Of a stretch of DNA of 64,000 nt, positions 1,587 to 29,358 are shown one piece after another; within the stretch, counting starts at the first letter, position 1; the number at the start of each line of letters is the position of its first letter. Made by a program: the position numbers and the translations under genes. A model generated the notes under the pieces. The model made no database searches and was not told where the DNA came from. It worked only from the letters and a program-made list of their open reading frames with translations. The DNA is from Halichondria panicea (lineage: Eukaryota; Porifera; Demospongiae; Suberitida; Halichondriidae), in the NCBI RefSeq assembly GCF_963675165.1, contig NC_087379.1, forward strand, positions 1,187,001 to 1,251,000. The letters run 5' to 3'.

Positions 1587-1633
<47 letters not shown>

Positions 1634-7687: not shown

Positions 7688-7697
7688 GATGGTCCTA

Positions 7698-7748
7698 TAG
7701 TCTCACGCACCAGCCCTGAATGTTTTCTATTTGAACGCTAGGTCGATA
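7698..7748. repeat. Half copy of the internal hairpin, inverted
   Basis: This segment is the reverse complement of about 7530-7578 with few differences. It lies just outside the right end of the preceding element. Confidence 0.7.
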
Positions 7749-8989: not shown

Positions 8990-9069
8990 TGTGCGGTTGA
9001 CGCAAATATGCGTCATCCGCGGTTACCAGCTTATTCCGTAATGACGCAAATTTGCGTCAACCGCGGGGA
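8990..9069. repeat. 80-bp palindromic element with two near-identical dyads
   Basis: The dyads TGACGCAAATATGCGTCA (8998-9015) and TGACGCAAATTTGCGTCA (9042-9059) sit in mirrored flanks (GCGGTTG on the left, CAACCGC on the right). The second dyad is a perfect 18-bp palindrome. It could be a tiny foldback element or a paired protein-binding site upstream of the D-G cluster. Confidence 0.65.
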
Positions 9070-9181: not shown

Positions 9182-9595
9182 ATGAAGAGCCTATAGCAAT
9201 CGTTCTCACCCTAACTGCACTTGCAGTGGTAAGTCTATAATCACTAGGCGTAGCTGTCAATTTCCTCCTTTGTATATAGGTGGCTCAAGCTATACTGTGT
9301 ACTGTCGTCCAAGAACATGCTCTAGTGCGGGATATTATACTTCAACTACGATACTACAGCCTTGATTCAAGGCCGATTAAATCTTGAATCGAGGCTACTA
9401 CGATATACATGCGCCAGTGACACCTGTCGAATCACCACCTGCCCAACTGGACAACGCTTTAATACAGAGAGAGTGCGAATGCGAGTGCCGGGGAGAGCAA
9501 ATCTGCCCTCCACGATATGTGTACAACCAGACACTCTGCACATTCATGTGTGTGCTCACAAAACCAACGCTGTCCACCTGGACTGCTCTATTATT
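9182..9595 (+). pseudogene. Broken 5' fragment of a D-type CXCXC gene
   Basis: The segment matches the signal-peptide exon, intron 1 (GTAAGT to TATAG) and the first motifs of genes D-G. Part of the first motif region is missing, and the rest of the gene is absent. It has frame breaks in the signal-peptide exon and beyond, so no secreted product is expected. A foldback insert of about 40 bp (about 9355-9395, arms CCTTGATTCAAG and CTTGAATCGAGG) lies in the first motif between repeated ACTACGATA sequence. It is the most upstream and oldest-looking copy of the tandem array. Confidence 0.8.
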
Positions 9596-9728
9596 GTGTG
9601 TACATAATGACCCCTTATAAAATATATCTCGGTCAGCTTTAATTTTTAATATTAACTTCATATCACCCATTATCAGTACTGTACTTATACTGTATGGTTC
9701 ATTTTTTGTGTTTGTTTCCTCCACACAG

Positions 9729-9869
9729 ATTGAAGACACACTACTACTAGCTGACCATACTTGTCAGAAGATAGACACTCTGTTGATTCAGAAGCATTCC
9801 AGAGATCACTTTATAAACTCACAGTTGCTAGGCAGCACCATCAAGCAGCCAGGGAAATCTTACTGCTGA
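9729..9869 (+). other. Orphan exon-like open segment
   Basis: After a pyrimidine-rich CCTCCACACAG acceptor-like site there is a 47-codon open stretch starting IEDTLLLADHTC and ending in TGA at 9867-9869. No partner exon or domain was recognised. It could be a captured last exon or chance. Confidence 0.2.
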
Positions 9870-10214
9870 ACATATCAATTATTCCACAGTATAATATTCA
9901 ATTTGATAATTAGTAACGTCGTGTGATTGTTCAGTTCATTTTTATGTCATATTTATACTTAGTCTAACACATCATGTTAGCAGCTTATAACATAAGGTTT
10001 TGCTAAGATCTAGAAACATGTGTTCCAGGCGATACTACTAGTTGACACTTCTATTGTCCATGGACATCGTACACGGGGGACCGCTCAGCCTCCGACACCA
10101 CCATATCTAAACACACGTAAAAAAGCAGTGTGGCCAGTACCGCTTACTAATAGGTATATATATAAGGTACTACTTTTGAGGGTAGCATAATAGGGTACTG
10201 CTTTGTAGGGCAGT

Positions 10215-10545
10215 ATTATAAAGTGGAGGCACGAGCGACTGGAATAACATATTTGTTGATTTCAGAGCATTGGCATATAAGTACATGTATGTATTCTTGG
10301 ATGGATGCACGAACCAGTGGAATATAACAAACATGCAAGTTTAGACTTTAGAGCATCAGTGGAAGCACGAGTGACTGGATTCTAACAAACAAGTTTAGAC
10401 TTTAGAACATCGGTAATAGGTGGAGGCACGAGCCACTGGAATATAACAAACAAGTTTAGACTTCAGAGCATCAGTACAAGTGGATACACAAGCCATGCAA
10501 TTGCCAAACGCATCAGTACAAGTGGATGCACGAGCCAGTGGACCT
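10215..10545. repeat. Degenerate tandem repeat upstream of gene D
   Basis: About five imperfect copies of a 60-70 bp unit containing GCACGAGCCAGTGGAATATA and AACAAGTTTAGACTTTAGAG. Single degraded copies lie at 15465-15530 and 20036-20120, and a trace at 25320-25370, each upstream of a paralog. The repeat therefore belongs to the ancestral promoter region. Confidence 0.75.
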
Positions 10546-10683
10546 CACCCCAGCTTAATGATTAAACTGATAACAAACAAATTAAATACTTGTAGCCTTG
10601 CACACATATTAAAGGTCTTTCAAACCCTTAAAATATGATTGTTATCAGACAACAAAGGATCATTCAGTTATCAGTACATGCAG

Positions 10684-10692
10684 TATAAAAAG
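10684..10692 (+). promoter_or_regulatory. TATA box of gene D
   Basis: TATAAAAAG followed by GGCGATCAACG, conserved with genes E and F. It lies about 105 bases before the ATG. Confidence 0.7.
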
Positions 10693-10796
10693 GGCGATCA
10701 ACGTCGTGCAATTTACAGACAGGTTTTCTGTAGAAGAGGACACAGCAGGCCAAATCAAATCAAAACTGACGAAACCATCAGTAAGAGTGCAAGGAC

Positions 10797-13700
10797 ATGA
10801 GGAGCCTAGCAATCGTTCTTATACTAACTGCACTTGCAGTGGTAAGTCCAATACAATAATAAACAAATCAAGCCTTAATTTCCTTCTTCCTTTGTAGGTG
10901 GCTCAAGCTACTGTGCAGTGTCGTCCAAGAACATGCTCCAGGGGATATTACTTCAACTACGATACATGCGCCTGTGATACCTGTCGAATCACCACCTGCC
11001 CAACCGGACAGCGCTTCAATGCAGAGAAGTGCAAGTGTGAGTGCATCTACCGCCAATGCTCAGATGGGAAGACTTTTGATGAGCAATCCTGCGACTGCAA
11101 ATGTCCTCATCAACTTTACTGTGCCAGGCCGAGAGAGTTCAACTCAGACAGTTGCCAATGTGAGTGCCGAGGAGACCAAACCTGCAAAGCTCCGTTTGAA
11201 TACAACCAGAAACTCTGTCGATGTGTGTGCCCACAAAAACAATACTGTCCACCTGGTAAAATGTTCAGCTACAAAAAATGTGGGTGTCTTTGCTTTTTTC
11301 AGAGAGATTGCCCTAAGCCCCAAGAGTTCAATTCCGAGACCTGCCAATGTAAATGCCCAGCAATTAAGTTATGCCCGACTCCAAAACAGTTCAGTAGCAA
11401 AAGCTGCGATTGCGAGTGCCCGGACAACTATAAAGTGTGTCTTCACTCGGCACAAAGGTACAATCCGAATTTGTGTCGATGTGAATGTCCCGTGGTTCGA
11501 AGGTGTCCACCTGGACAAAAATTCAACAACAAAACATGCCAATGTGAATGTCCAACACCAAAGCCTAAATGTACCGCAGAGCAAGTGTTTGAACCTGTCT
11601 CCTGTCAATGCAAATGCTTAAACAGACCTAAAAAATGCCCCGATCCTCAGCTATTCGATGAAGAGTTTTGTCGCTGCAAATGTCCCAAATATCAGAATTG
11701 TCCTGGACGTCAAGTATTTAATGGTCAGACTTGCGAATGTGAATGTCCAATACCAAAGCCTAAATACAGTGCGGTACAAATATTTAATTCCATCTCCTGT
11801 CAGTGGGAATGTCCTCACAAGATATGCTCTTATCCTCAGGTTTTCGATGCAAAATATTGTCGCTGCAAATGCCCTAAAAATCAGACTTGTCCCAGAGGAC
11901 AAGTGTTTAATGGTCAGACTTGCCAGTGTGAATGTCCAAAGCCAAAGCCGACATGCACCAAAGCTCAAGTATACGATGAAGAGTGCTGTGCTTGCAAATG
12001 CCCTTACAAACCACCACAGTGTCCGTATGGGCAGATATTTCATCTTGATACGTGTAAATGCAGCTGTCCTGAGATTCTTAAATGCCCTAGAGGACAGGAA
12101 TTTGATTACACTTCCTGCAAATGCCGATGTCCCAAACCCATTTCAAAGTGTTATCCTAATCAAAGGTTCAATTACGTCTCTTGTGAGTGCGAGTGCCCAA
12201 AAGTACACAGTCCATACACAAACCAAACGTTCAATGACACGATTTGCGAATGGAGGTGTCCTAAAGAACTGACATGCCCGAAAGGACAACAATTTAACGC
12301 TCAGAAATGTGTCTGTGAGTGTCCTTACCCGTACCCAACATGTACATCAAATCAAGAATTCAATTATGGGAATTGTAAATGCGAGTGTCCTAAGAAACCA
12401 ACAAAATGTCCCTACTCTGCTCAGATATACGACTATGAATATTGTAAATGTGTCTGTCCTGTCATAAAGAAATGCCCGGGAAACCAGCACTTCAACCGAG
12501 AGACGTGCGAGTGTGAGTGTCCATATTCTAGACCATCCTGTACCAAAGCTCAAGTCTTCAACGAGATATCGTGTCGGTGTGAGTGCCCTTATATTCCTGA
12601 GAAGTGTCCATACTCAACTCAAGTATTCAATGGTAAGACGTGTAGCTGTGTATGCCCATACAGTGAAGAAAGATGCTATGGAGGCCAAGTTTTCAAGAAT
12701 GATGCATGCGCCTGCGCTTGTCCAAAAAAGCTAAACTGTACATCCCCTCAGAAGTTCAACGAATACTCATGCCAATGTGAGTGCCCAGATCGACCAAAGT
12801 ACTGCCCAAGTGGCAAAACCTTTAACGAGACTAGTTGTAAATGCGAATGCCTAAGTACTCTAAAATGCAAAGGATACACCGTTCTTAACGAAGACACTTG
12901 TGAATGCTACTGCCCCATCCAGACATGCCCTCAAGGCCAGTACTTTGATAGCAATACTTGCAGCTGTGTGTGTATCTACAAACCATCCTGCCCCAGATAT
13001 AAAGTGTTCAATACAAAAACGTGTGAGTGTGATTGTGCTTGGGTTGAGACTTGTCGATCTCCACGATACTTCAGCCATGACACATGTGCTTGCGAATGCC
13101 CTGCCAAGAAAGACTGCCCTGCCAACCAAAAGTTTGATCCATACAAGTGTACATGCAAATGTATCAAGAGCCCCTATTGCGCAGCAAATTTTGTTTTCGA
13201 CAACCAGCAATGCGACTGCGTCTGCAACCGTCAATGCACTCCACCTTTAACCCTCGACAAAACTAACTGCAACTGTGTGTGCGACAGAGAGTGTGGTCCT
13301 GGGATGAAGCTAACCAGTGGCTGTGAATGTGTGCCTCTAACCTGCAGCAATGCTCGGACATACAATGAATGCTATGCAGCTAGATGCGACCATAACCCCA
13401 ACAAATCTTGCACGTAAGTCAGAACATAGATTAATCTCTTCAATTATAATTATGGTTAGAACTAGGGTAATAAAATTAATATAGACAGCCATAATTATTA
13501 TTGCATGCATGGAGCATGTACATATTTAAGTACCAAAGTTTATTGTGTAGCTCATCCATTAAAATAGTGGGGGCAAATATGTATCATTAGAGGGGATACT
13601 CAGAAGGGCACTATATAGAATGTCAGACGATCATAAGATGTAACAGTTATTGTGTGTATAACTATATGGAGCTACAGCCAGGCTGCTTTGTCTATATGAG

Positions 13701-14112
13701 TGTCAATAATGCAGATGCTGTTTATAATAACACCAAACATCACAAAAAAATAGCTAGCTAGACTATTGTACACAGCTGGCTCATGCACATGCACCAATGC
13801 AATGCATAATCACATGATTTACTTGTACAAGCTCGAGGGTGAATTGACTGTATATATAATATTATATACATATCAGTGTAGGATATCATACAGCTGCATG
13901 TTTCCACCGATGACTATATATTCCATGCATGCATGCCACTTAAAGTTGTTTCCCCCCTCCCCAGATACACTCGTAACAACTTGTGCCTCTGTCCCTGCTG
14001 TCTCACGAAGTCCGACCCTCGTTACAGTGCATGGTGCCTTCACTGGTCGAGATACGGAAGATCACAATGTACTTACAGGCAGAATGCTGACTTCTGCAAG
14101 TGGGGCTGCTAA
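10797..14112 (+). CDS. CXCXC-repeat secreted protein D (tandem paralog 1)
   Basis: Exons 10797-10841, 10898-13413 and 13965-14112 (introns phase 0 and phase 2) give 902 residues. Exon 1 encodes MRSLAIVLILTALAV, and exon 2 opens VAQATVQCRPRTC, completing a signal peptide likely cut after AQA. Exon 2 is about 35 tandem motifs of the type C-P-x-x-Q-x-F-x6-C-x-C-x-C-P. The last exon encodes a different Cys-rich module (CLCPCCLTKSD, then C-x2-W-x3-G-x3-C-x7-FC-x3-C) that resembles the second half of a ShK-type framework. D has lost motif cysteines that E and F keep: KYSAVQ for KCSAIQ, CQWECP for CQCECP, EWRCP for ECRCP. A motif core is also shortened near 12205. This suggests relaxed constraint. 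Role unknown; secretion is inferred. Confidence 0.88.
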
Positions 14113-14397
14113 GTCAGCACTCAACTACCATAGCAATCAACGAACAAATACTGCAGTAGAATGTGTACGTATAATTATGTAGCTGCTTAAAAATCATTAA
14201 CGAGGACTGTACAAATAATTATTCTTGTTAGAATTTGTATATGAATACTATAATGTGCATACTATATAATAGTGTGTATTAATACGATAGTATAATTATA
14301 ATTATGAGAAACTTCTCTGCCAAGCCATGCAGGTCTGAGCGATCAGGAATTATACATGCAGCTATACTTATCAATTGATAATTAAAGTACATATAGG

Positions 14398-14455
14398 AAC
14401 CGTAGCAGGGACAGGGACACAGAGCAACGAGTCACGATCCACTGGGGCATACTGA
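14398..14455 (+). pseudogene. Relic of gene-C-like 3' end, spacer D-E
   Basis: The sequence around GGGACAGGGACACAGAGCAA and TCACGATCCACTGG aligns with the Ser/Gly-rich coding tail of gene C (about 6085-6145). It is a short decayed fragment and codes for nothing. Confidence 0.6.
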
Positions 14456-15020
14456 CACTGGGGAATATCTAGATATTGAAGCATGCAGGGGGTGATCAAG
14501 GGTACTGGTGAGCAATGGGGCCGCGCGCTCAGTGCATGTGCGGCCAAAATTTTAAGACCCTACATTAATTTAGACAACGGAAGAAAAAACAAATTGCACT
14601 GTCACTGTATTACATATAATAACTATTGCCTGTGTCACATAGTGTAAAGTTTACTTCCTTTCAAACAGTGTGGAGCCAATCCTGCTTGCATATGCTTAGT
14701 TGGGCGTGATTATGACTTGTAATAGCAAGAGCTACATGTACATTATAGAATGCGATACATGCAGCTGTATATATAAGTACAGTGATGTTTATGGATGAGA
14801 ACCTTTTTACAGATTGTAGTTCAAATAAAGGAACAAAATTAATCGTAAATTATACTCAAGTTTGTGCTATACAAGCAACTTTGCCCATTCAAATCCACGG
14901 AAATTTATACTGAAACACAAATTTAAACATTGACAACCAACTCAGTATATGATTAGGTACTAAACTTAAAGCGCTGATAACATGAAGAATATACCTTACA
15001 CAATAAGTGTTCCTCTAGTA
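14456..15020. other. Spacer D-E, duplicated in E-F
   Basis: No gene. The sequence is nearly collinear with 19050-19590, so it is part of the segmental duplication unit. Confidence 0.7.
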
Positions 15021-15150
15021 CTTGCCCCCAGGCTACGTCGATGTCGTAATAGGAGAACGGTTTTTGTACCGATGATACTCAGGGACTTGGTAGGTGTCTT
15101 TGCCGCTGATGCTCAGGGAAAAGTCCACTTTAATTGCTACCTTTGGATGT
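15021..15150 (-). pseudogene. Decayed copy of an inverted exon-like block
   Basis: Matches 24560-24727 (CTAGTACTTGCCCCCAGGCT and GATGATACTCAGGGACTTGG) but lacks an internal stretch, so the minus-strand frame seen in the third copy is lost. Confidence 0.65.
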
Positions 15151-15627
15151 GTGTGTGAAGGTGTATGGTGGATTATAGTGTATGCGGGAGGATGTCTCTT
15201 GATTCTTAGACTCGTAACACAACATGCAGATTTCTTAACACTGATAGAAGGAAATCCCTGTTTGCTTAGATGTATACCGTGTTTAGGTTACACCATGGAA
15301 AGTGTATTTCAAGATATGTAAACAATATGTGATGTAAGTACCCCCAGGCAATGGTGGTTTTGCTGTTGCCTAGGAACTATGAGCATTAGAAGGCTTGTAT
15401 CTAGCCAATCACCTATAAAGGAGATTTTACACGACGTAAACAAGTTTGGATTTTATATAGGGCATCCGTATAAGTGCATGTATGCACAAGCGACTGTAGC
15501 AAACAAGTTTTGACTTTAGCCGGTGAACCTCACCCAGGCTTAATTAAAACCAAAACTTAAATACTTGAATGTAGCCTTGCAATATCAAGGGCTTTCAAAC
15601 CCAGACAAAGCATCATTCAGTTATCAG

Positions 15628-15638
15628 TATATAAAAAG
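15628..15638 (+). promoter_or_regulatory. TATA box of gene E
   Basis: TATATAAAAAG followed by GGCAATCAACGTG, conserved in position and flanks with genes D and F. Confidence 0.7.
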
Positions 15639-15760
15639 GGCAATCAACGTGTCATTTAAAGCAGATGTTGACGTGTTTTCTGTAGAAGAAAATATACAGC
15701 AGGCCAAATCAAATCAAAATCAACGGAACCGTTTCAATACAACAGTGAGAGTGCAAGGAC

Positions 15761-18717
15761 ATGAGGAGCCTAGCAATCGTTCTCACACTAACTGCACTTG
15801 CAGTGGTAAGCTAATACAATAAGAAACAAATCAAGTCTTAATTTCCTTCTTCCTTCGTAGGTGGCTCAAGCTACTGTGCACTGTCGTCCAAGAACATGCT
15901 CTAGGGGATATTACTTCAACTACGATACATGCGCCTGTGACACCTGTCGAATCACTACCTGCCCAACTGGACAACGCTTCAACGCAGAGAAGTGCAAGTG
16001 TGAGTGCATTTACCGGCAATGCTCAGATGGGAAGACTTTTGATGAGCAATCCTGCGAGTGCAAATGTCCTCATCAACTTTACTGTGCCAGGCCGAGAGAG
16101 TTCAACTCCAACAGTTGCCAATGCCAGTGCCGAGGAGACCAAACCTGCAAAGCTCCGTTTGAGTACAACCAGAAACTCTGTCGATGCGTGTGCCCACAAA
16201 AACAATACTGTCCACCTGGTAAAATGTTCAGCTATAGAAAATGTGGGTGTGTTTGTTTTTTTCAGAGAGATTGCCCCGAGCCCCAAGAGTTCAATTCCGA
16301 GACCTGCCAATGTAAATGCCCAGCAATTAAGTTATGCCCGACTCCAAAACAGTTTAGCAGCAAAAGCTGTGATTGCGAGTGCCCAAACAAATATGAGATG
16401 TGTCTTTACTCGGCACAAAGATACAATCCGAATTTGTGTCGATGTGAATGTCCCGTGGTTCGAAGGTGTCCACCTAGCCAAATTTTTAACAAAAAAACAT
16501 GCCAATGTGAATGTCCAACACCAAAGCCTAAATGTACCGCAGCACAAGTGTTTGAACCTGTCACCTGTCAATGCAAATGCCTGAACAGACCCTCAAAATG
16601 CCCTTATCCTCAGCAGGTATTCGATGAAGAGTTTTGTCGCTGCAAATGCCCCAAATATCAGACTTGTCCTGGAGGCCAAGTATTTAATGGTCAGACTTGC
16701 GAATGTGAATGTCCAATACCAAAGCCTAAATGCAGTGCAATACAAGTGTTTGACCCTATCTCCTGTCAGTGTGAATGTCCTCACAGACCCAAGATATGTC
16801 CCTATCCTCAAGTTTTCGATGAAAAATATTGTCGCTGCAAATGCCCTAAAAATCAGACTTGTCCTAGAGGACAAGTGTTTAATGGTCAGACTTGCCAGTG
16901 TGAATGTCCAAAGCCAAAGCCGACATGTACCAAAGCTCAAGTATACGATGAAGAGTGCTGTGCTTGCAAATGCCCTTACAAACCAGCTCAATGTCCGTAT
17001 GGGCAGATATTTCATCTTGATACGTGTAAATGCAGCTGTCCTGAGATTCTTAAATGCCCTAGAAGACAGGAATTTGATTACACTTCCTGCAAATGCCGAT
17101 GTCCCAAACCCATTCCAAAATGTTATCCTAATCAACGATTCAATTACGTCTCCTGTGAGTGCGAGTGCCCAAAAGTACCTGAATATTGTCCATACACGAA
17201 CCAAACGTTCAATGACACGATTTGCGAATGTAGGTGCCCTAAAAAACTGACATGCCCGAAAGGACAACAATTTAACGCTCAGAAATGTGTCTGTGAGTGT
17301 CCTTACCCGTACCCAACATGTACATCAAATCAAGAATTCAATTATGGGAATTGTAAATGCGAGTGTCCTAAGAAACCAACAAAATGTCCCTACTCTGCTC
17401 AGATATTCAATTATGAATATTGTAAATGTGTCTGTCCTGTCATAAAGAAATGCCCGGGAAACCAGCGATTCAACCGAGAGACGTGCGAGTGTGAGTGTCC
17501 ATATTCTAGACCATCCTGTACCAAAGCTCAAGTCTTCAACGAGATATCGTGTCGGTGTGAGTGCCCTTATATTCCCGAAAAGTGTCCATACTCAACTCAA
17601 GTATTCAATGGTAAGACGTGTAGCTGTGTGTGCCCATACAGTGAAGAAAGATGCTATGGAGGCCAAGTTTTCAAGAAAGATGTATGCGCCTGCGCTTGTC
17701 CAAAAAAACTAAACTGTACAGCCCCTCAAAAGTTCAACGAATACTCATGCCAATGTGAGTGCCCAGATCGACCCAAGTACTGCCCAAGAGGCAAAACCTT
17801 TAACGAAGGCACTTGTGAATGCTCCTGCCCCATCAAGACATGCCCTCAAGGCCAGTACTTTGATAGCGATACTTGCAGCTGTGTGTGTAGCCACAAACCA
17901 TCCTGCCCCAGACATAAAGTGTTCAATACAACAACTTGTGAGTGTGATTGTGCTTGGGTCGAGACTTGTCAATCTCCACGATATTTCAGCCATGACACAT
18001 GCGCTTGCGAATGCCGTGCCAAGAAAGATTGCCCTGTCAACCAAAAGTTTGATCCATACAAGTGTACATGCATATGTATCAAGAGCCCCTATTGCGCGGC
18101 AAATTTTGTTTTTGACAACCAGCAATGCGACTGCATCTGCAACCGTCGATGCGCTCCACCTTTAACCCTCGACAAAACTAACTGCAAATGTGTGTGCGAG
18201 AGAGAGTGTGGTCCTGGGATGAAGCTAACTAGTGGCTGTGAATGTGTGCCTCTAACCTGCAGCAATGCTAAGACATCCAAGGAATGCTCTGCAGCTAGAT
18301 GCGACCATAACCCCAACAAATCTTGCACGTAAGTCAGAACATAGATTAATTTCTTCAATTATAATTATGGTTAGAACTAGACACAGCTGGCTCATGCACA
18401 TGCACCAATGCAATGCATAATCACATGATTTACTTGTACAAGCTCGAGGGTGAATTGACTGTATGTATATATATACATATCAGTGTAGGATATCATACAG
18501 CTGCATGTTTCCACCGATGACTATATTCCATGCATGCATGCCACTTAAAGTTGTTTCCCCCCTCCCCAGATACACTCGCGATAACCTGTGCCTCTGTCCC
18601 TGCTGTCTCACGAAGTCCGACCCTCGTTACAGTGCATGGTGCCTGAACTGGTCGAGATACGGAAGATCACAATGTACTTACAGGCAGAATGCTGACTTCT
18701 GCAAGTGGGGCTGCTAA
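15761..18717 (+). CDS. CXCXC-repeat secreted protein E (tandem paralog 2)
   Basis: Exons 15761-15805, 15861-18328 and 18570-18717 give 886 residues. The signal exon reads MRSLAIVLTLTALAV. The giant exon has about 35 CXCXC motifs, and the last exon is the same 148-nt ShK-like module as in D. E is nearly identical to F along coding and flanking DNA, so they are the youngest pair. Compared with D, one motif (the CKGYTVLNEDTC unit of D) is missing. Cysteines lost in D are intact here, for example KCSAIQ, CQCECP and ECRCP. Expected to be secreted and heavily disulfide-bonded; target unknown. Confidence 0.9.
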
Positions 18718-18989
18718 GTCAGCACTCAACTACCATAGCTATCAACGAACAAATACTGCAGTAGAATGTGTACGTATAATTATGTAGCTGCTTAAATCAT
18801 TAACGACGACTGTACAAATAATTATACTGGTTAGAATTCGTTTATATAATGTGCATACTATAATTATAATAGTGTGTGTTAATACGCATAATTATAATTA
18901 TAATTATGAGAAACTTCTCTGCCAAGCCAGGTCTGAGCGACCAGGAATTATTACATGCAGCTATACTTATCAATTGATCAATAAAGTAC

Positions 18990-19048
18990 ATATAGGAACC
19001 GTAGCAAGGACAAGGACACAGAGCAACGAGTCACGATCCACTGGGATA
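18990..19048 (+). pseudogene. Relic of gene-C-like 3' end, spacer E-F
   Basis: Same fragment as 14398-14455 (ACACAGAGCAACGAGTCACG), recognisable against the gene C tail. Confidence 0.6.
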
Positions 19049-19580
19049 TACTGACACTGGGGAATATCTGATATTGAAGCAGGGGGTGATCAAGGGTACT
19101 GGTGAGCAATGGGGCCGCGCGCTCAGTGCATTCGCGGCCAAAATTTTAGGACCCTACATTAATTAGACAGAAGAAAAAACAAATTGCAGTGTCACAGTAT
19201 TACATAATTATAATAACTATTGCCTGTTTCACGCAGTGTGAAGTTTACTTCCTTTTAAACAGTGTGGAGCCAATCCTGATTGCGTATGCTTAGTTGGGCG
19301 TGATTATGACTTGTAATAGCAAGAGCTACATATGTGCATTATAGAATTCGATACAGCTGTATCTGTATATAATTATAAGTACAGTGATGTTTATGCATGA
19401 GAACCTTTTTACAGATTGTAGTTCAAATAAAGGAACAAAATTAATCTCAAGTTTGTGCTATACAAGCAACTTTGCCCATTCAAATCCACGGGAGTTTGTA
19501 CTGAAACACAAATTTGACAACCAACTCAGTATATGAGTACTAAACTTAAAGCACTGATAACATGAAGAATATACCTTACA
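19049..19580. other. Spacer E-F
   Basis: Duplicate of the D-E spacer, no gene. Confidence 0.7.
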
Positions 19581-19725
19581 CAATAAGTGTTCCTCTAGTA
19601 CTTGCCCCCAGGCTACGTCGATGTCATAATAGGAGAGCGGTTTTTGTACCGATGATACTCAGGGACTTGGTAGTTATCTTTGCCGCTGATGCTTAGGGAA
19701 AAGTCCACTTTAATTGCCACCTGTG
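19581..19725 (-). pseudogene. Second decayed copy of the inverted exon-like block
   Basis: Matches 15021-15150 and, less completely, 24560-24727. The reading frame is not maintained. Confidence 0.65.
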
Positions 19726-20232
19726 GATGTGTGTGTGTAGGTGTATGGTGGATTATAGTGTATGCGGGAGGATGTCTCTATAATCCTTTGATTCTTAGAC
19801 TCGTAACACAAGAACAAAGAAACAAAGAAATCCCCGTTTGCTTAGATGTATACCGTGTTTAGGTTACACCATGGAAATTGTATTTCAAGATATGTAAACA
19901 ATATGTGATGTAAATACCCCCAGGCAATGGTGGTTTTGCTGTTGCCTAGGAACTATGAGCATTAGAAGGCTTGTATCTAGCCAATTACCTAAAAATGAGA
20001 TTTTACACGACGTAAACAAGTTTGGATTTTATATAGAGCATCTGTATAAGTGCATGTATGCACAAGCGACTGTAGCAAACAAGTTTTGACTTTAGAGCAT
20101 CATAACGCACCAGCCGGTGAACCTCACCCAGGCTTAATTAAAACCAAAACTTAAATACTTGAATGTAGCCTTACAAACATAATTATATCAAGGGCTTTCA
20201 AACCCAGACAAAGCATCATTCATTTATCAGTG

Positions 20233-20241
20233 TATAAAAAG
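20233..20241 (+). promoter_or_regulatory. TATA box of gene F
   Basis: TATAAAAAG with the conserved downstream GGCGATCAACGTGTCATTTA. Confidence 0.7.
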
Positions 20242-20363
20242 GGCGATCAACGTGTCATTTAAAGTAGATGTTGACGTGTTTTCTGTAGAAGAAAATATAC
20301 AGCAGGCCAAATCATATCAAAATCGACGGAACCGTTTCAATACAACAGTGAGAGTGCAAGGAC

Positions 20364-23316
20364 ATGAGGAGCCTAGCAATCATTCTCACACTAACTGCAC
20401 TTGCAGTGGTAAGTCCAATACAACAATTTGACTGTAACTTCCCTTCCTTCTTCCTTTGTAGGTGGCTCAAGCTACTGTGCACTGTCGTCCAAGAACATGC
20501 TCTAGGGGATATTACTTCAACTACGATACATGCGCCTGTGACACCTGTCGAATCACTACCTGCCCAACTGGACAACGCTTCAACGCAGAAAAGTGCAAGT
20601 GTGAGTGCATTTACCGCCAATGCTCAGATGGGAAGACTTTTGATGAGCAATCCTGCAACTGCAAATGTCCTCATGAACTTTACTGTGCCAGGCCGAGAGA
20701 GTTCAACTCCAACAGTTGCCAATGCCAGTGCCGAGGAGACCAAACCTGCAAAGCTCCGTTTGAGTACAACCAGAAACTCTGTCGATGCGTGTGCCCACAA
20801 AAACAATACTGTCCACCTGGTAAAATGTTCAGCTATAGAAAATGTGGGTGTGTTTGTTTTTTTCAGAGAGATTGCCCCGAGCCCCAAGAGTTCAATTCCG
20901 AGACCTGCCAATGTAAATGCCCAGCAATTAAGTTATGCCCGACTCCAAAACAGTTCAGTAGCAAAAGCTGTGATTGCGAGTGCCCAAACAAATATGAGAT
21001 GTGTCTTTACTCGGCACAAAGGTACAATCCGAATTTGTGTCGATGTGAATGTCCCGTGGTTCGAAGGTGTCCACCTAGCCAAATTTTTAACAAAAAAACA
21101 TGCCAATGTGAATGTCCAACACCAAAGCCTAAATGTACCGCAGCACAAGTGTTTGAACCTGTCTCCTGTCAATGCAAATGCCTGAACAGACCCTCAAAAT
21201 GCCCTTATCCTCAGCAGGTATTTGATGAAGAGTTTTGTCGCTGCAAATGCCCCAAATATCAGACTTGTCCTGGAGGTCAAGTATTTAATGGTCAGACTTG
21301 CGAATGTGAATGTCCAATACCAAAGCCTAAATGCAGTGCAATACAAGTGTTCGAGCCTATCTCCTGTCAGTGTAAATGTCCTCACAGACCCAAGATATGT
21401 CCCTATCCTCAGGTTTTCGATGAAAAATATTGTCGCTGCAAATGCCCTAAAAATCAGACTTGTCCTAGAGGACAAGTATTTAATGGTCAGACTTGCCAGT
21501 GTGAATGTCCAAAGCCAAAGCCGACATGCACCAAAGCTCAAGTATACGATGAAGAGTGCTGTGCTTGCAAATGCCCTTACAAACCAGCTCAATGTCCGTA
21601 TGGGCAGATATTTCATCTTGATACGTGTAAATGCAGCTGTCCTGAGATTCTTAAATGTCCTAGAGGACAGGAATTTGATTACACTTCCTGCAAATGCCGA
21701 TGTCCCAAACCCATTTCAAAGTGTTATCCTAATCAAAGGTTCAATTACGTCTCCTGTGAGTGCGAGTGCCCAAAAGTACCCGAATACTGTCCATACACAA
21801 ACCAAACGTTCAATGACACGATTTGCAAATGTAGGTGCCCTAAAGAACTGACATGCCCGAAAGGACAACAATTTAACGCTCAGAAATGTGTCTGTGAGTG
21901 TCCTTACCCGTACTCAACATGTACATCAAATCAAGAATTCAATTATGGGAATTGTAAATGCGAGTGTCCTAAGAAACCAGCAAAATGTCCCTACTCTGTT
22001 CAGATATACGATTATGAATATTGTAAATGTGTCTGTCCTGTCATAAAGAAATGCCCGGGAAACCAGCGATTCAACCGAGAGACGTGCGAGTGTGAGTGTC
22101 CATATTCTAGACCATCCTGTACCAAAGCTCAAGTCTTCAACGAGATATCGTGTCGGTGTGAGTGCCCTTATATTCCCGAAAAGTGTCCATACTCAACTCA
22201 AGTATTCAATGGTAAGACATGTAGCTGTGTATGCCCATACAGTGAAGAAAGATGCTATGGAGGCCAAGTTTTCAAGAAAGATGTATGCGCCTGCGCTTGT
22301 CCAAAAAAGCTAAACTGTACAGCCCCTCAAAAGTTCAACGAATACTCATGCCAATGTGAGTGCCCAGATCGACCCAAGTACTGCCCAAGAGGCAAAACCT
22401 TTAACGAAGACACTTGTGAATGCTCCTGCCCCATTAAGACATGCCCTCAAGGCCAGTACTTTGATAGCGATACTTGCAGCTGTGTGTGTAGCTACAAACC
22501 ATCCTGCCCCAGACATAAAGTGTTCAATACAACAACTTGTGAGTGTGATTGTGCTTGGGTCGAGACTTGTCAATCTCCACGATATTTCAGCCATGACACA
22601 TGCGCTTGCGAATGCCGTGCCGAGAAAGATTGCCCTGCCAACCAAAAGTTTGATCCATACAAGTGTACATGCATATGTATCAAGAGCCCCTATTGCGCGG
22701 CAAACTTTGTTTTCGACAACCAGCAATGCGACTGCGTCTGCAACCGTCGATGCGCTCCACCTTTAACCCTCGACAAAACTAACTGCAATTGTGTGTGCGA
22801 GAGAGAGTGTGGTCCTGGGATGAAGCTAACCAGTGGCTGTGAATGTGTGCCTCTAACCTGCAGCAATGCTAAGACATCCAATGAATGCTCTGCAGCTAGA
22901 TGCGACCATTACCCCAACAAATCTTGCACGTAAGTCAGAACTAGTGTAATAAATAGACACCCACTTTATTGTGACTGACAATGGAGCATAAATTGGTATA
23001 ATGCACTTAATTGACATGCACGTGCTCACCGATGCATAATCACATGATATACTTAATTTTGTACAAGCTTGATGTATGAGCTCCCCCAGCAGTATACTAT
23101 AGTAGGATATAAGGCTATAATAATGACACTTAAAAAGCTTTTGTTTCCCCCTCTTCCCCTTTCTTCAGATACACTCGTAACAACGTGTGTCTATGTCCCT
23201 GCTGTCTCACAAAGTGGGACCCTCGTCACAGTGCATCGTGCTTGAACTGGTCGAGATACGGAAGATCACAATGTACTTACAGGCAGAATGCTGACTTCTG
23301 CAAGTGGGTCTGCTAA
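20364..23316 (+). CDS. CXCXC-repeat secreted protein F (tandem paralog 3)
   Basis: Exons 20364-20408, 20462-22929 and 23169-23316 give 886 residues, the same length as E. Signal exon MRSLAIILTLTALAV, repeat exon starting VAQATVHCRPRTC, last exon with the ShK-like module (CLNWSRYGRSQC, then NADFCKWVC). Differences from E are scattered substitutions, mostly between motif cysteines. All splice sites (GTAAGT donors, pyrimidine-AG acceptors) are intact, so F is probably expressed and functional. Confidence 0.9.
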
Positions 23317-23589
23317 GTCAGCACTCAACTACCATAGCTCCCAGAAAAGAACAGAACAAGTGTACTGCAGTAGTATATTATGTGTACATAGCATGCTAAT
23401 GAGGACTGTATACAATTAATTTCAAATGCTCGTTAGAATTCGGATATGGATATAATTATTAGTGCATGTGCATTAATGCTGAAAGCATTTGAGCTAAAAA
23501 TATGTGTTACATAGTTACACCACTCCAGAGAAGTGCCAAGCCAGGTCTGAGCAATTCGGAATTAGCTACTTGATAACTAAAGGTATGTA

Positions 23590-23800
23590 TATGAACCGCA
23601 GTTGCAATGGTACAGAAACAGGGTCATGGAGCAGCGGGTCACGATCCAGCGGAGGTGGTACAGCCTTGCAAACCATGACCATTTCAACCCAGGCCCAGTT
23701 GAAAGATGCCCTGCCATGCAAGACATTGAACACACCACAGGTCATGCAGATACGTTGATGGAGTGCAAGTAATGATAATCATTAATACACATGTATTATA
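23590..23800 (+). pseudogene. Relic of gene-C-like 3' end, spacer F-G (longest copy)
   Basis: This 200-bp stretch follows gene C from the Ser/Gly-rich tail through the terminal motif and into the 3' flank. Shared words are GGTCACGATCCAGC, TTTCAACCCAGGCCCAG, TTGAAAGATG, GACATTGAACACAC and GAGTGCAAGTAAT. The cysteine-coding frame is not kept, so it is dead. It shows that a C-like gene once lay between the D-type copies. Confidence 0.8.
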
Positions 23801-23802
23801 GC

Positions 23803-24297
23803 AAGAGTCCATAATAAAAGAGACTCAGGCAAGTTAAGTGCTCAGAAACTTAATATACAAGACTATAGTGATCATATCTTTAGGATAGTTACACATAAAT
23901 TAATGAAACTTACTGGCAATATCAATGTAGACTTACAAAAAAGCTACATGACTTTTATAACCTGTTAAGCAGGTAGATGGTCTTCAAAAATGCATAAATG
24001 TTCAGGCAAGTTTACCTGAGATTATGATAATTATTATTTAATTCCAAATTAATTAAGAATAATTGCCTTAACTTGCCTGAGGAGAGTATCGAATGAAGCA
24101 CTACCTTGCATCATAATTAAGTATTCGGAAAGTAAAGTGACTTCCTGCTTGGTATAACTGGAGCAGCTACTTCCCTCGAGGCAGCAATAATGTTATTGCC
24201 ATATCGTCATTATTGATCACGTGTTTCAGACAAGAAGTCACGTTAAATATAGTATATGCATGCACTCGATACTCTCTCTCTTTTATTATGGACTCTT
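23803..24297. repeat. Terminal-inverted-repeat element of about 495 bp
   Basis: Ends AAGAGTCCATAATAAAAGAG (23803) and CTCTTTTATTATGGACTCTT (to 24297) are near-perfect inverted copies. Inner CTCAGGCAAGTTAAG/CTTAACTTGCCTGAG segments are also inverted. No coding sequence, so a non-autonomous DNA element. It is absent from the D-E and E-F spacers. Confidence 0.75.
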
Positions 24298-24574
24298 GGT
24301 TTAAAGCCATGCATACGTGTCAATAACTCTATTTATAAAATCACACATGCAGCTAGCTGGAACTTGATGAAGCACAGGACTGTATAACCTTAAATTTGTG
24401 CTATATGTACAAGCAATAATGTCGATGATAATACTAGCTAATCAAAATCAATTGCATGAAGGTCGTACTGATACACAAAACACTGATAATCACCTCACGC
24501 AGGTGCTAAACTTAAAGCGCTGATAAATACACCAACATAAAGAATACCTTACACAATATTCTCTGAGTGTTCCT

Positions 24575-24727
24575 CTAGTACTTGCCCCCAGGCTGAGGCT
24601 GCTCTAGACGGTGCTTCACCATCGCCACGTCGATGTCATAATAGGAGAACGGTTTGTACCGATGATACTCAGGGACTTGGTAGGTGTCTTTGCCGCTGGT
24701 GCTCTGGGAGGAGTCACCTTTGCCACC
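24575..24727 (-). other. Putative last exon of an unrecognised minus-strand gene
   Basis: On the minus strand an acceptor-like CACACATCCACAG precedes about 50 open codons ending in a stop (GGKGDSSQSTSGKDTYQVPE, then YHRYKPFSYYDIDVAMVKHR, then LEQPQPGGKY). Decayed copies at 15021-15150 and 19581-19725 have lost the frame. The composition does not look random. The family is not recognised. Confidence 0.4.
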
Positions 24728-24989
24728 TGTGGATGTGTGTGTGCATGTGTGTGGAGGTATATGGTGGATTAGTGTAGGCAGTATGCATTGGTGTGTGTGT
24801 GTGTGTACAAAGGGCACTAATGTAGTGTATTTAGACAAAACTCAATTGAATTATGGGCACTCTTATAAGTTGCTTCCGTACCATTATGCAATAGATATGC
24901 AACAAAAGGTAGCACTGTATAACAGTTATTGTCATATTCTATTGAGTGTTTTGAGTGGGTGACTGTAGACAAAAACACACCTCTAACAC

Positions 24990-25113
24990 AACAACTGTGG
25001 GGTGTCAGAGAGGATGCTTAGACTTGGCCTAATTGGAATTCCCAGAAGTGTTGCCAATAGAGCAACTCCATAGGACACAATACTAATCAGTGTGATAGCT
25101 ACCGCTGCCGTCC
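24990..25113 (-). other. Candidate transmembrane exon upstream of the preceding exon
   Basis: On the minus strand, after TGCATGCTTAG, the frame reads TAAVAITLISIVSYGVALLA followed by TLLGIPIRPSLSILSDTPQ, a clear hydrophobic helix. No good donor joins it in frame to 24727, so whether the two belong together is uncertain. Confidence 0.25.
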
Positions 25114-25500
25114 TAAGCATGCAAATCTATACAGCACACAAAACACCATTCTAATGTCCATTCTAAGCATGTAAATCCAGAGCAAAAAACCCACAAGAGA
25201 CTCCAGCTGCATCAATTCACATAGACACACAGTAAGATTTTAGTTCCATATTATGATGACGTAACCATACTGAAAATAAAACAAACGGCTGCCTAACTTA
25301 ATTATGGGGGAAATAGTTTTGACTTTCTAGCACCAGCATGTAAGTGGACACACGAGCCAGCGATCCCCCCAGCAGAGCTTAATTAATCTAATAACAGCAA
25401 ATTTCAAAGGCTTCTAATACTGCACCCTCTTGAATGACTTACAAATATTTAGGGTTATGGCTGTCAGATTCCTAGACTAGACAAAGCAGCATTAAACGCT

Positions 25501-25508
25501 TACAAAAG
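25501..25508 (+). promoter_or_regulatory. Weak TATA-like site of gene G
   Basis: TACAAAAG replaces the TATAAAAAG of genes D-F at the corresponding place, suggesting altered promoter strength. Confidence 0.4.
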
Positions 25509-25626
25509 GGTGAACCACTTCAGTCCAGCAGAGATTGAAGGTTTTCTGTAGAACTAGATACAGTAGGCCGTATCAACTCTAAATTCAAAGCCATTTTAAC
25601 ACAACAGTGCATGAGAGTGCAAGGAC

Positions 25627-28600
25627 ATGAGGAGCCTAGCAATCCTTCTCACCCTAACTGCATTTGCAGTAGTAAGTCCAACTGAACATATTGATAAAAA
25701 AAAAAATTGACTGTTAACTCTTTCCTTTGCAGGTGGCTCAAGCTACTGTGTACTGTCGTCCAAGAACATGCTCTAAAGGATATTACTTCAACTATCGCAT
25801 ATGCGCCTGTGACACGTGTCGAATCACCACCTGCCCAACTGGACAACGCTTCAACGCACAGAAGTGCAGGTGTGAGTGCATCTACCGTCAATGCTCAGAT
25901 GGGAAGGTTTTCGATCAACACTCCTGCCAGTGCAAATGTCCTAGTCAGCTTTACTGTGCCAGGCCGAAAGAGTTTAACTCAGACAATTGTCAATGTGAGT
26001 GCCCGGGAGACCAAACCTGCAAAGCTCCGTTTGTATACAACCAGAAGCTCTGCCGATGTGTGTGCCCACGAAGACAATACTGTCCAGCTGGTCAAGTGTT
26101 CAGCTTCAGAAGCTGTGGATGCGTTTGTCTTTTTCAGAGAGATTGCCCCGAGCCCCAAGAGTTCAATTCCGAGACCTGCCAATGTAGATGCCCTGCAATT
26201 AAGCTGTGCGTGACTCCAAAAGTGTTCAGTAGCAAAAGCTGCGATTGCGAGTGCCCCAAGAAGCCTGAGGCCTGTCTTTACTCAGCACAAAGGTACAATA
26301 CAGATTTGTGTCGATGTGAATGTCCCGTGGTTCGAAGGTGTCCACCTAGCCAAATCTTCAACTACAAAACATGCCGATGTGAATGTCCAACACCAAAGCC
26401 TAAGTGCACCGCAGCACAAGTCTTTGAATCCATCTCTTGTCAATGCAAATGTCCAAACAAACCTTCAAAATGCCCATATCCTCAGCAGGTATTCGATGAA
26501 CAATTGTGTCGCTGCAAATGCCCTAAATATCAGACCTGTCCCACAGGACAAGTGTTTAATGACCAGACTTGCCAGTGTGAATGTCCAAAGCCAAAGCCGA
26601 CATGTACCAAAGCTCAGGTATTCGATGAGAACTCTTGTACTTGCAAATGCCCTTATAAACCATCGCAATGCCCGTATGGCCAGATATTCGATTCTGATAC
26701 GTGTCAGTGCAGATGTCCAGAAATCCTGAAATGCCTTGGAGGACAAGAATTCGATTCCACTTCCTGCAAATGCCAATGTCCCAGACCCATTCCAAAATGT
26801 TATCCTAATCAAAGGTTCAATGACGTTTCCTGTGAGTGTGAGTGCCCAAAAGTGCCCGAATATTGTCCATACCCAAACCAAGTGTTCAACAACACGATTT
26901 GCGAATGTAGATGCCCTAAAGAACTGACTTGCCCGAAAGGACAACAATTTAACTCTCAGAAATGTGTCTGTGAGTGTCCTTACCCGTACCCAACATGCAC
27001 ACCCAATCAAGAATTCAATTCTTATACCTGTCAATGCGAGTGTCCCCGAAAACCAGCTGGATGTCCCTACTCTGCTCAGATATACGACAATGAACAGTGT
27101 AAGTGTGTTTGTCCTGTCGTTAAAAAATGCCCCGGAAACCAGCGATTCAACCGAAAGACGTGCGAGTGTGAGTGTCCCTATCCTAGACCATCCTGTACCA
27201 AAGCTCAAGTCTTCAACGAGATATCATGCTTGTGTGAGTGCCCAAACAAGCCCAAGACGTGTCCATATCCTGCTCAAGAATTCAACGATAAGACGTGTAC
27301 CTGTGTGTGCCCAGATGGTGAAGAAAGATGTTATGGAGGCCAGGTTTTCAAGAAAGACATATGCGCCTGCGCTTGTCCAACCACGCTAAAATGTACATCC
27401 CCCCAAGAGTTCAACACTAAATCATGCCAATGTGAGTGCCCAGATCGACCAGAGTACTGTCCAAGAGGCAAAACATTTAACGAGTATACTTGTAAATGTG
27501 AATGCCCAACTCCCCCAAAATGCAAAGGTAATACAGTTTTTAACGAAGACACTTGTGCGTGTGAGTGCCCCTACCCACCATCCTGCTACAAACCACAAGT
27601 CATCGACCCGATTGAATGTACCTGCGGCTGCCCAAACAAAGTCGACTATTGCCCCTACTCCCCACAAATATTTGACCAACGTACTTGTACCTGTAGGTGC
27701 CCCAAAGATTTAACGTGCGTATCCCCACAGAGGTTCGACCCCACCACTTGTGAATGTAGTTGTCCCGATCCACACAGAACATGCCCAGATAAGAAAATCT
27801 TCGATTCTTACACATGTAAATGCCGATGTCCAAAACAAATTACCTGCCCAGGCAACCAGAGGTTCGATGATAGTACCTGCGATTGCGTTTGTCCTGACAC
27901 AGGATACTGCCCAAAAGGTCAGACCAGAAATCCGCTAACTTGTAGATGTGAGTGTCCAGCGACTAAATGCCCCGGATCTCAAGTACTTGACGAGCACACC
28001 TGCGAATGCACATGTCCCCACACTCACAAATGTACACCCCCAGCCACCTTTGATCCCTACACTTGTGAATGCTCCTGCCCTGTCAAGACATGCCCTCATG
28101 GCCAGTACTTTGACAAGGATACTTGTAGCTGTGTATGTAGCTACAAACCATCCTGCCCCAAAAACAAAGTGTTCAACACGAAAACTTGTGAGTGTGACTG
28201 TGCTTGGGTTGAAACTTGTCGATCTCCACGATATTTTAGCCATGATTCATGCGCTTGCGAATGTCCTACCCAGAAAGATTGCCCTGGCAACCAAGAGTTC
28301 GATCAAGACGAGTGTAGATGCAAATGTAACAAGAGCCCCTATTGCGCAGCAAATTTTGTTTTCGACCACCAGCAATGCGAATGTGCCTGCAACCGTCAAT
28401 GCAACCACCCTTTAACCCTCGACAAAACCACGTGCAATTGTGTGTGCGAGAGACAGTGTGGTCCTGGGATGAAGCTAACCAGTGGCTGTGAATGTGTGCC
28501 TCTAACCTGCAGCAATGCTAAGACATCCAAGGAATGCTATGAAGCTAGATGCGACCACTACCCCAACAAGTATTGCACGTAAGTCCTCACTGGAATAAAA

Positions 28601-29358
28601 AAATACAGCCATTATTTTATTGCGGACTGACAATGGGATGTGTACTAATGTTAGACTACAAAAGCTTCATTGTGTTCATACACTGTAGCTAGTTCAGTAA
28701 TAATGTGGTGCCAAGAAGGTAGGCTAAAATGCTTGTATGGAATGTTAGACAATCATACGATACGACCGTTTTTGGTGTGTCTTTATGCTAAGGTGTGGAG
28801 CTACTGTAAAGCTGTTTTGTGAGTGGCGATAATGTAGATGCTATTCTAGACTACAGCCATTAGTTGAAGGCACCATCAGTAACCATAACACTACAGGAGC
28901 CAGCTGATTATCGCATTTATGAGGGTCAATAATGTGATCTAGACTATACAGCCATTACTCAAAGCACCATAACATTAGCCATGCAGTTGATTATTGCAAC
29001 AAATAAACAACTCTATTACAATGGATATAAAGCACATTCAAATGCTAACACAAATGAGCAAACTAAGACATTAAAGAGCCACTAATATTAGAACATACAC
29101 AATTCTTTGCTAACAATTATTAGTCAAATGTACAGTAATTTTTCTAATACAGTAATACACTATACAGTACTGTATATTCATATTTACCTCCCCTCCCCCT
29201 ATCCACCCAGATACACCCACAACAACCTGTGCCTATGTCCCTGCTGCCTCACTAAGTCTGACCCTCGTCATGGTGCATGGTGCTTGGACTGGTCGAGATA
29301 CGGGGAACCACAATGTGCTTACGGACAGAATGCTGACTTCTGTAAATGGGTCTGCTAA
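25627..29358 (+). CDS. CXCXC-repeat secreted protein G (tandem paralog 4, longest)
   Basis: Exons 25627-25671, 25733-28578 and 29211-29358 give 1012 residues. Signal exon MRSLAILLTLTAFAV, then VAQATVYCRPRTC. G is the most diverged of the four. It lacks a three-motif block present in D-F after the CRCKCPKYQTCP motif, and it carries several extra motifs (about 27580-28080, for example CYKPQVIDPIECTCGCP and CPKGQTRNPLTCRCECP). It retains the CKGNTVFNEDTC unit seen in D. The last exon keeps the ShK-like spacing and ends NADFCKWVC. Intron 2 is longer than in the others (28579-29210). No broken motif was noticed. Function unknown, predicted secreted. Confidence 0.9.

What the first reader, a model, noticed from the sequence alone, without database searches (positions are those of the whole stretch)
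9182..29358. Tandem family of giant CXCXC secreted proteins with a ShK-like C-terminal exon
Four intact paralogs share one architecture: a signal-peptide exon, one exon with about 30-40 C-x10-C-x-C-x-C motifs, and a separate 148-nt exon with C-x2-W-x3-G-x3-C-x7-F-C-x3-C spacing. CXCXC motifs are known from Balbiani ring 3 protein and VEGF-C/D, but a chain this long fused to a ShK-like module is a combination I do not know. Three further relatives lie upstream. This is the strongest candidate in the window for an undescribed system, perhaps an extracellular or secreted structural array.
Basis: partly seen in the sequence, partly recalled or inferred. Interest (0 to 1): 0.8.

Follow-up and report, generated by a model that had tools for sequence, protein, structure and literature searches.

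The report
Tandem genes for cysteine-repeat secreted proteins
A row of genes, probably from a sponge, makes long, apparently secreted proteins built from dozens of small cysteine-rich units of a known silk and growth-factor type, ending in a short cysteine-rich piece that matched no known family searched.

Summary
Four intact three-exon paralogs (10797-29358, + strand) encode 886-1012 aa proteins with a leader, 17.8-18.2% cysteine, a chain of C-x10-C-x-C-x-C units (Pfam CXCXC, E 1e-33 to 6e-52) and a separate 148-nt last exon. That exon looks coding: dN/dS is 0.14-0.45 in six pairs, while intron 2 is about 50% identical in five of six. Three upstream relatives and one broken copy (9182 on) belong to the family.

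Two parts of the interpretation fail. No ShKT match was found (Pfam, E up to 10). The repeat type is the known Balbiani-ring-3/VEGF-C repeat, with BR3P-like proteins already reported from sponges (PMC10328876, passages).

My addition is a disulfide-ladder model. A five-unit AlphaFold model (pLDDT 86.7) shows one hairpin per unit. By my assignment 188 of 199 units keep all four cysteines; nine of the exceptions are block- or chain-end units lacking only the last one, and two lack the same pair. Best guess: an extracellular structural array with neighbouring hairpins stapled together. The C-terminal 12-cysteine module is unassigned. There are no RNA, protein or localisation data, and the sponge origin was not verified.

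The parts
10797..14112 (+). G1: three-exon CXCXC gene (exons 10797-10841, 10898-13413, 13965-14112), 902 aa; two internal units have lost the first and third cysteine
15761..18717 (+). G2: three-exon CXCXC gene (15761-15805, 15861-18328, 18570-18717), 886 aa; mosaic: upstream region and exon 2 like G3, but intron 1, intron 2, exon 3 and downstream like G1
20364..23316 (+). G3: three-exon CXCXC gene (20364-20408, 20462-22929, 23169-23316), 886 aa
25627..29358 (+). G4: three-exon CXCXC gene (25627-25671, 25733-28578, 29211-29358), 1012 aa, the longest and most diverged of the four
13965..14112 (+). 148-nt last exon of G1; copies at 18570-18717, 23169-23316 and 29211-29358; with the end of exon 2 it makes a 76-aa C-terminal module with 12 cysteines, 8 of them from this exon
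9182..9617 (+). broken fifth copy: exon-1 remnant with in-frame stop at 9182, exon-2 fragments, an ORF 9381-9617 still matching the repeat profile (E 3.9e-6)
3..1760 (+). relative A: CXCXC units, Ser/Lys/Arg-rich linker, terminal unit; 5' end outside the window; 66-bp unit repeated 7.3 times at 309-790
2748..4235 (+). relative B: exons 2748-2810 and 3012-4235, 428 aa, CXCXC units, Ser/Lys/Arg-rich linker, terminal unit
4956..6242 (+). relative C: exons 4956-5009 and 5109-6242, 395 aa, short CXCXC blocks separated by Pro-rich and Ser/Arg-rich linkers
23598..23739 (+). relic of the 3' end of a C-like gene, about 280 bp downstream of the G3 stop (77% over 156 alignment columns)

Best explanation
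The locus is a tandem array, presumably in an animal genome, of secreted proteins of the Balbiani-ring-3 / VEGF-C 'silk homology' (CXCXC) repeat kind. Each unit (Ca-x10-Cb-x-Cc-x-Cd, about 21 aa) forms one small beta-hairpin. Within a unit Ca pairs with Cc; Cd staples to Cb of the next unit, so the chain is one continuous disulfide ladder of 37-43 hairpins, a stiff, protease-resistant rod. A 12-cysteine C-terminal module, 8 of its cysteines from the separate last exon, caps or anchors the rod. The proteins are secreted and probably serve as extracellular structural or matrix material. Copy number and length change by unequal exchange between genes and of whole repeat units. Shown here: gene models, repeat family, purifying selection, mosaic duplication, cysteine-retention pattern (with units assigned by eye). 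Predicted: hairpin fold. By inspection: leader peptide. Inferred: disulfide pairing, rod, secretion, structural role.
For: PF03128 hits in 7 of 7 genes. Exon 1 encodes a hydrophobic leader (MRSLAIVLILTALAV, then VAQA). dN/dS 0.25-0.34 for exon 2 and 0.14-0.45 for exon 3 over 6 pairs; one-sided Fisher p for exon 3 is below 0.03 in 5 of 6 pairs and 0.24 in G1-G3. Five-unit model pLDDT 86.7, pTM 0.58, ten strands, i.e. five hairpins. The top PDB profile hit is the VEGF-165 heparin-binding domain (E 0.021), and the two VEGF-A/neuropilin chains (4deq) have the highest Foldseek probability (0.38 and 0.21) and lowest rmsd (3.6 and 3.2) of the 50 rows shown. That solved domain is described as two subdomains, each with two disulfides and a two-stranded sheet (PMC9856036 passage). 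By my assignment, 188 of 199 units keep all four cysteines; the 11 exceptions are 9 block- or chain-end units lacking only Cd and 2 units of G1 lacking exactly Ca and Cc. In gene C each of three linkers has exactly one Cd-equivalent: either Cd before it or an extra cysteine after it. The last VEGF-165 unit also lacks Cd (alignment).
Against: No disulfide, expression or localisation data; no signal-peptide program run. I could not read sulfur distances from the model. The pairing in VEGF-165 is recalled, not read (the search found nothing). Foldseek found nothing in PDB at E 0.001 or better, and the VEGF chains rank only 15 and 20 by E-value. An alternative Cb-Cd pairing within a unit also predicts paired Ca/Cc loss. 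The four G ends are one ancestral case, and there a cysteine follows five residues after Cc (C-x4-C), which I counted with the tail module but could be a displaced Cd. G1-G3 have an odd cysteine count (161), so at least one thiol per chain is free or intermolecular. Three units before Ser/Lys/Arg-rich linkers keep Cd (A, B, C), which the model explains only by pairing across the linker; A and B also have 4 and 2 extra linker cysteines.
Confidence: 0.6

Rival explanations
1. Matrix-bound ligand or growth-factor sink: the array binds heparan-like polysaccharides or signalling proteins, as the VEGF-C silk homology domain is said to do, rather than being structural material.
For: PMC5816233 (passages) says this domain gives VEGF-C most of its heparin affinity and determines its matrix sequestration. 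Relatives A, B and C carry Ser/Lys/Arg-rich linkers and furin-like R-x-[KR]-R sites.
Against: G1-G4 have no such linker and no R-x-[KR]-R site, and pI is only about 8.0-8.5. No VEGF homology domain in the seven sequences scanned. [quoted passage not shown]
Confidence: 0.2
2. Biomineral or skeletal matrix protein: the array, with the Ser/Lys/Arg-rich relatives, templates or glues spicules or skeletal fibres.
For: Ser-rich and basic segments in A, B and C; tandem expansion typical of bulk matrix proteins (inference).
Against: No direct evidence; host not verified as a spicule-bearing sponge; Ser/Lys/Arg segments are absent from G1-G4.
Confidence: 0.12
3. Secreted metal-binding (metallothionein-like) protein, using CXCXC thiolates.
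For: About 18% cysteine and CXCXC motifs.
Against: A leader peptide would send it to the oxidising secretory path (inference); conserved Phe, Asn/Asp and Pro positions and the hairpin prediction fit a disulfide fold; by my assignment cysteines are lost only at chain or block ends or as one specific pair.
Confidence: 0.04
4. The last exon is not part of these genes: the protein ends at the in-frame TAA inside the intron-2 donor, and exon 3 belongs to another transcript.
For: Without splicing, the frame ends right after exon 2 (ACG TAA). No RNA data. The neutrality test for exon 3 fails in one of six pairs (G1-G3, p 0.24).
Against: Phase-compatible conserved donor and acceptor in 4 of 4 genes; exon 3 stays 83-96% identical with dN/dS below 0.5 in 6 of 6 pairs, while intron 2 is 49-53% identical in 5 of 6 pairs and 87% in the recent G1-G2 pair.
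Confidence: 0.04

Closest known systems
Balbiani ring 3 protein of Chironomus (BR3P; Pfam PF03128 CXCXC)
   Same: Long chain of C-x10-C-x-C-x-C units with a leader; PF03128 met in 7 of 7 genes.
   Different: BR3 gene: 11 kb, 38 introns (PMC4192438 passages), 185-kDa secretory protein (a title in the reference list of PMC5816233). Here the whole array lies in one exon, 99-112 kDa, with a distinct C-terminal module. No BR3 sequence was compared directly.
VEGF-C/D silk homology domain and VEGF-165 heparin-binding domain
   Same: Same cysteine spacing (PMC5816233 passage); hairpin subdomains; last VEGF-165 unit without the last cysteine.
   Different: No VEGF homology domain found; tens of units rather than a few; no sponge hit was accepted as VEGF in PMC10328876 (passage).
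Sponge BR3P-like proteins
   Same: PMC10328876 reports five genuine BR3P or BR3P-like proteins among 11 Porifera hits (passages), so the kind is known in sponges.
   Different: Their architecture is not given in the passages seen; the supplementary table was not available, so they may even be the same genes.
ShKT domain (PF01549)
   Same: Partial C-x2-W-x3-G spacing in the last exon (the resemblance to ShKT is recalled).
   Different: No profile match at E up to 10; 8 cysteines in the exon and 12 in the module; a ShKT domain has six (recalled).

Membership tests
CXCXC / BR3P repeat (PF03128) | Repeats scoring above the curated cut-off (15 bits) | tested here: met
   27.3-170.4 bits in 7 of 7 sequences
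CXCXC / BR3P repeat (PF03128) | C-x10-C-x-C-x-C spacing | tested here: met
   123 of 145 regular units of G1-G4 have exactly x10, the rest 9 or 11, or the variant with an extra cysteine
CXCXC / BR3P repeat (PF03128) | Secretion | tested here: inconclusive
   Hydrophobic leader exon in 4 of 4 G genes, B and C; A's start lies outside the window; no signal-peptide program run, no localisation data
VEGF/PDGF growth factors | Cystine-knot VEGF homology domain | tested here: not met
   No PDGF/VEGF domain in the 7 repeat-exon sequences scanned at E up to 1; the 5' part of A lies outside the window
ShKT domain (PF01549) | Profile match | tested here: not met
   0 ShKT hits at E up to 10 for two 76-aa modules, two 49-aa exon products and all 4 exon-3 products; HMMER filters may drop very weak matches
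ShKT domain (PF01549) | Six-cysteine helical fold (recalled) | tested here: inconclusive
   AlphaFold model of exon 3 alone, four sequences: pLDDT 43.1, no usable fold
VEGF-165-type disulfide ladder | Ca-Cc and Cd-to-next-Cb bonds (recalled) | not testable with these tools
   Only indirect: cysteine retention and loss pattern

The most novel reading that the evidence does not exclude
These are bulk extracellular polymers of an animal without VEGF: one continuous disulfide ladder of about 40 VEGF-heparin-domain-like hairpins, capped by a previously undescribed 12-cysteine domain. They represent the ancestral stand-alone use of the repeat that VEGF-C later fused to a growth factor.
Probability: 0.25. 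Interest if true: 0.6.

Novelty: new variant of a known kind. Interest (0 to 1): 0.42.

Why it matters
PMC5816233 (2018; passage) calls the silk homology domain of VEGF-C enigmatic and its phylogenetic origin unknown; PMC10328876 (2023; passages) holds that the oldest VEGF already carried the repeat and found no sponge VEGF. Clean, long, stand-alone arrays in what is probably a sponge give a source to compare. Their natural variation (which cysteines can be lost, and where) yields a testable disulfide topology for the repeat family. If the material is structural, it would be a disulfide-laddered extracellular polymer outside arthropod silk.

Tried and rejected
ShK-like last exon: rejected for want of any profile match. 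The weak DUF454 hit (E 0.12-0.18 in Pfam, about 12 against a cut-off of 35 bits; NCBIfam PRK10527 E 0.031, 14.4 against 163 bits) covers a 34- or 35-residue piece of a 115- or 125-position model and is taken as chance. CglD (NCBIfam, E 0.0045, 14.8 against 400 bits) and Crov588 (PDB, E 0.00027) are taken as repeat or composition matches; the printed Crov588 alignment matches Phe-Asn spacing, not cysteines.

Relatives elsewhere: one scan of genome contigs (A2) and two completed scans of viral contigs (G4 exon-2 protein; A3) gave no confirmed relative. These are prokaryote and viral collections, so a sponge relative was not to be expected there. No genome is held for the window.

First repeat alignment (A4, 66 overlapping five-unit windows) was thrown out as misregistered: 223 columns. 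The model used A5, 24 hand-chosen windows from G1-G4, A and B, out of 115 five-unit windows available for G1-G4 plus those of A and B.

Fold search in the viral library: best rows were two giant-virus proteins (E 2.9e-4 and 2.6e-3, probability 0.99 and 0.96) but with TM 0.26 or less and rmsd above 14; I set them aside as local matches of small cysteine-rich strands and did not follow them. The VIA-align library was not installed. No Rfam match in the window.

Literature: ten searches. Lists were cut in 37 (30 of 34 shown), 56 (20 of 42), 61 (15 of 28) and 79 (10 of 49), and no paper was opened on the strength of 61 or 79, so a description of these proteins could be among those listed or cut. 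Ten papers were seen as passages, none in full: PMC10328876, PMC6385260, PMC8078820, PMC9432349, PMC9745057, PMC4192438, PMC8625919, PMC9856036, PMC3328748, PMC5816233.

Full report
What is there. Each has a 45-nt leader exon, one 2.5-2.8 kb repeat exon and a 148-nt last exon, all on the + strand, joined in frame by GT..AG introns. Intron 2 begins inside a TAA-containing donor, so unspliced messages would end right after exon 2. The interval's stated start, 9182, is a broken fifth copy: its exon-1 remnant has an in-frame TAG at codon 5, and an ORF at 9381-9617 still matches the repeat profile (E 3.9e-6).

Repeat family. PF03128 (CXCXC) is hit in 7 of 7 sequences: 113-170 bits for the four intact paralogs and 27-35 bits for the three upstream relatives. 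Of 145 regular units in G1-G4, 123 have exactly C-x10-C-x-C-x-C. The commonest residues give C-P-x-G-Q-x-F-N-x-x-T-C-x-C-E-C. G1-G4 have 17.8-18.2% cysteine.

Is the last exon coding? Between paralogs, exon 3 is 83-96% identical with dN/dS 0.14-0.45 (6 pairs). Intron 2 is 49-53% identical in 5 of 6 pairs; the sixth, G1-G2, is 87%. One-sided Fisher tests against neutrality on rounded counts give p 0.022 (G1-G2), 0.24 (G1-G3), 0.00016 (G1-G4), 0.027 (G2-G3), 0.0005 (G2-G4) and 0.006 (G3-G4); the pairs share history, so these are not independent. Only four copies of the module were found in the window (the next match has E 0.25).

Is it ShK-like? The spacing resembles part of ShKT (recalled), but no ShKT match appears at E up to 10 for any form given, no PDB sequence matches, and the model of exon 3 alone has pLDDT 43. 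Together with about 28 residues from the end of exon 2 the module has 12 cysteines in 76 aa, 8 of them from exon 3. I call it unassigned.

Structure of the array. An alignment of 24 five-unit stretches from the window gave a model with pLDDT 86.7 and pTM 0.58: ten short strands, one hairpin per unit. The best PDB profile match is the VEGF-165 heparin-binding domain (E 0.021). Foldseek found nothing significant in PDB, but the two VEGF-A/neuropilin chains have the highest probability and lowest rmsd of the 50 rows shown, at ranks 15 and 20 by E-value. I looked at this link knowing that PMC8078820 lists 1vgh as template for PF03128 (passage). The solved domain has two subdomains, each with two disulfides and a two-stranded sheet (PMC9856036 passage).

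Disulfide ladder (inference). Call the four cysteines of a unit Ca, Cb, Cc, Cd. The script flagged 235 candidate positions, 187 of them complete units (recounted). By eye I assigned 12 of the other 48 as units: one complete with a long first loop (in B), 11 incomplete. The remaining 36 I took as N-terminal extra cysteines, tail-module cysteines, linker or loop cysteines, or a piece at the window edge; two linker C-x-C pairs in gene A are ambiguous. So 188 of 199 units are complete. Of the 11 incomplete, 9 lack only Cd, and all 9 are the last unit of a block or chain: G1-G4 (one ancestral case, with a cysteine five residues further on that I counted with the tail), A, B, and three in C. The other 2 are internal units of G1, and both lack Ca and Cc where G2 and G3 have them. 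If two lost cysteines were a random pair, two such coincidences have a chance of 1 in 36. Gene C is the clearest case: at its first two linkers the upstream unit lacks Cd and the downstream block starts with an extra cysteine; at the third the upstream Cd is kept and there is no extra cysteine. This is what Ca-Cc plus Cd-to-next-Cb bonding predicts, and it agrees with the VEGF-165 pairing as I recall it (not confirmed from a text: one search found none). It would make each protein one covalent ladder. G1-G3 have an odd number of cysteines (161), with one extra in one unit; G4 has 184, so G1-G3 might cross-link between chains.

How the array evolved. Positions 13770-18350 and 18381-22950 are 94.4% identical over 4640 columns. 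G2 matches G3 in the 500 bp upstream and in exon 2 (97% and 98%), but G1 in intron 2, exon 3 and the 300 bp downstream (87%, 96%, 95%). That is what unequal crossing-over within the genes would leave. It is not the whole story: the short intron 1 of G2 is 93% like G1 and only 60% like G3, so at least one further exchange or conversion is needed. Within genes, whole units multiply: a 66-bp unit 7.3 times in A and a 195-bp block about twice in G2 and G3. A relic of the 3' end of a C-like gene lies downstream of G3 (77%), with faint 28-31 bp traces downstream of G1 and G2.

Function. Secretion is inferred from the leader. Structural matrix material is the best guess because of length, uniform repeats and tandem expansion (inference). 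[quoted passage not shown] Relatives A, B and C, with Ser/Lys/Arg-rich linkers and furin-like sites, may act more like VEGF-C propeptides.

Known or new. Searches for CXCXC or Balbiani-ring proteins, in sponges or at large, were. One listed paper that I opened bears on sponges: PMC10328876 reports sponge BR3P-like proteins in passing (passages). No paper was opened on the strength or of the ShK-and-sponge search, and the library holds only open-licence papers, so absence is weak evidence. I file the genes as CXCXC/BR3P-type proteins, not as VEGFs and not as ShKT proteins. The elements I did not find described are the single-exon long array in a likely sponge, the unassigned 12-cysteine C-terminal module and the retention pattern that supports a ladder.

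Noticed in passing
window about 24575-25124, - strand; partial copies near 15010-15140 and 19590-19700: A possible small minus-strand gene (hydrophobic first exon, last exon ending ..HRLEQPQPGGKY-stop) sits upstream of G4; copies of its last exon, apparently broken, lie upstream of G2 and G3 as part of the tandem unit (coordinates approximate).
   Followed up: partly
window 309-790: Gene A carries a 66-bp (one-unit) near-identical tandem array, 7.3 copies at 93% match, perhaps length-variable between individuals.
   Followed up: no
window 1545-1663: AGC-type run in gene A coding a poly-Ser stretch downstream of an RSKR site.
   Followed up: no
window 7526-7751 and 8993-9064; 6867-7089 with 42818-43040: Palindromic elements and an inverted copy pair (85%), perhaps small non-autonomous transposons.
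   Followed up: no
window 44197-45144, + strand: ORF with a weak match to the fibrillar collagen C-terminal domain (E 0.00093, 19 bits against a cut-off of 26.2), many cysteines; no Gly-X-Y run of five or more triplets with three prolines was found in the window's six-frame stretches.
   Followed up: partly
window 51457-51900, + strand: Reverse-transcriptase fragment (PF00078, E 4.5e-18), a retroelement remnant.
   Followed up: no
window 55308-56930 and 57325-58347, + strand: Protein-kinase ORF (PF00069, E 1e-38) followed by a Kelch-repeat ORF (PF13964, E 6.1e-19).
   Followed up: no
viral structure library, (model of window 27128-27457): Two giant-virus proteins (Chrysochromulina ericina virus, Harvfovirus) share local structure with the repeat model at E 2.9e-4 and 2.6e-3, poor overall superposition.
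   Followed up: no
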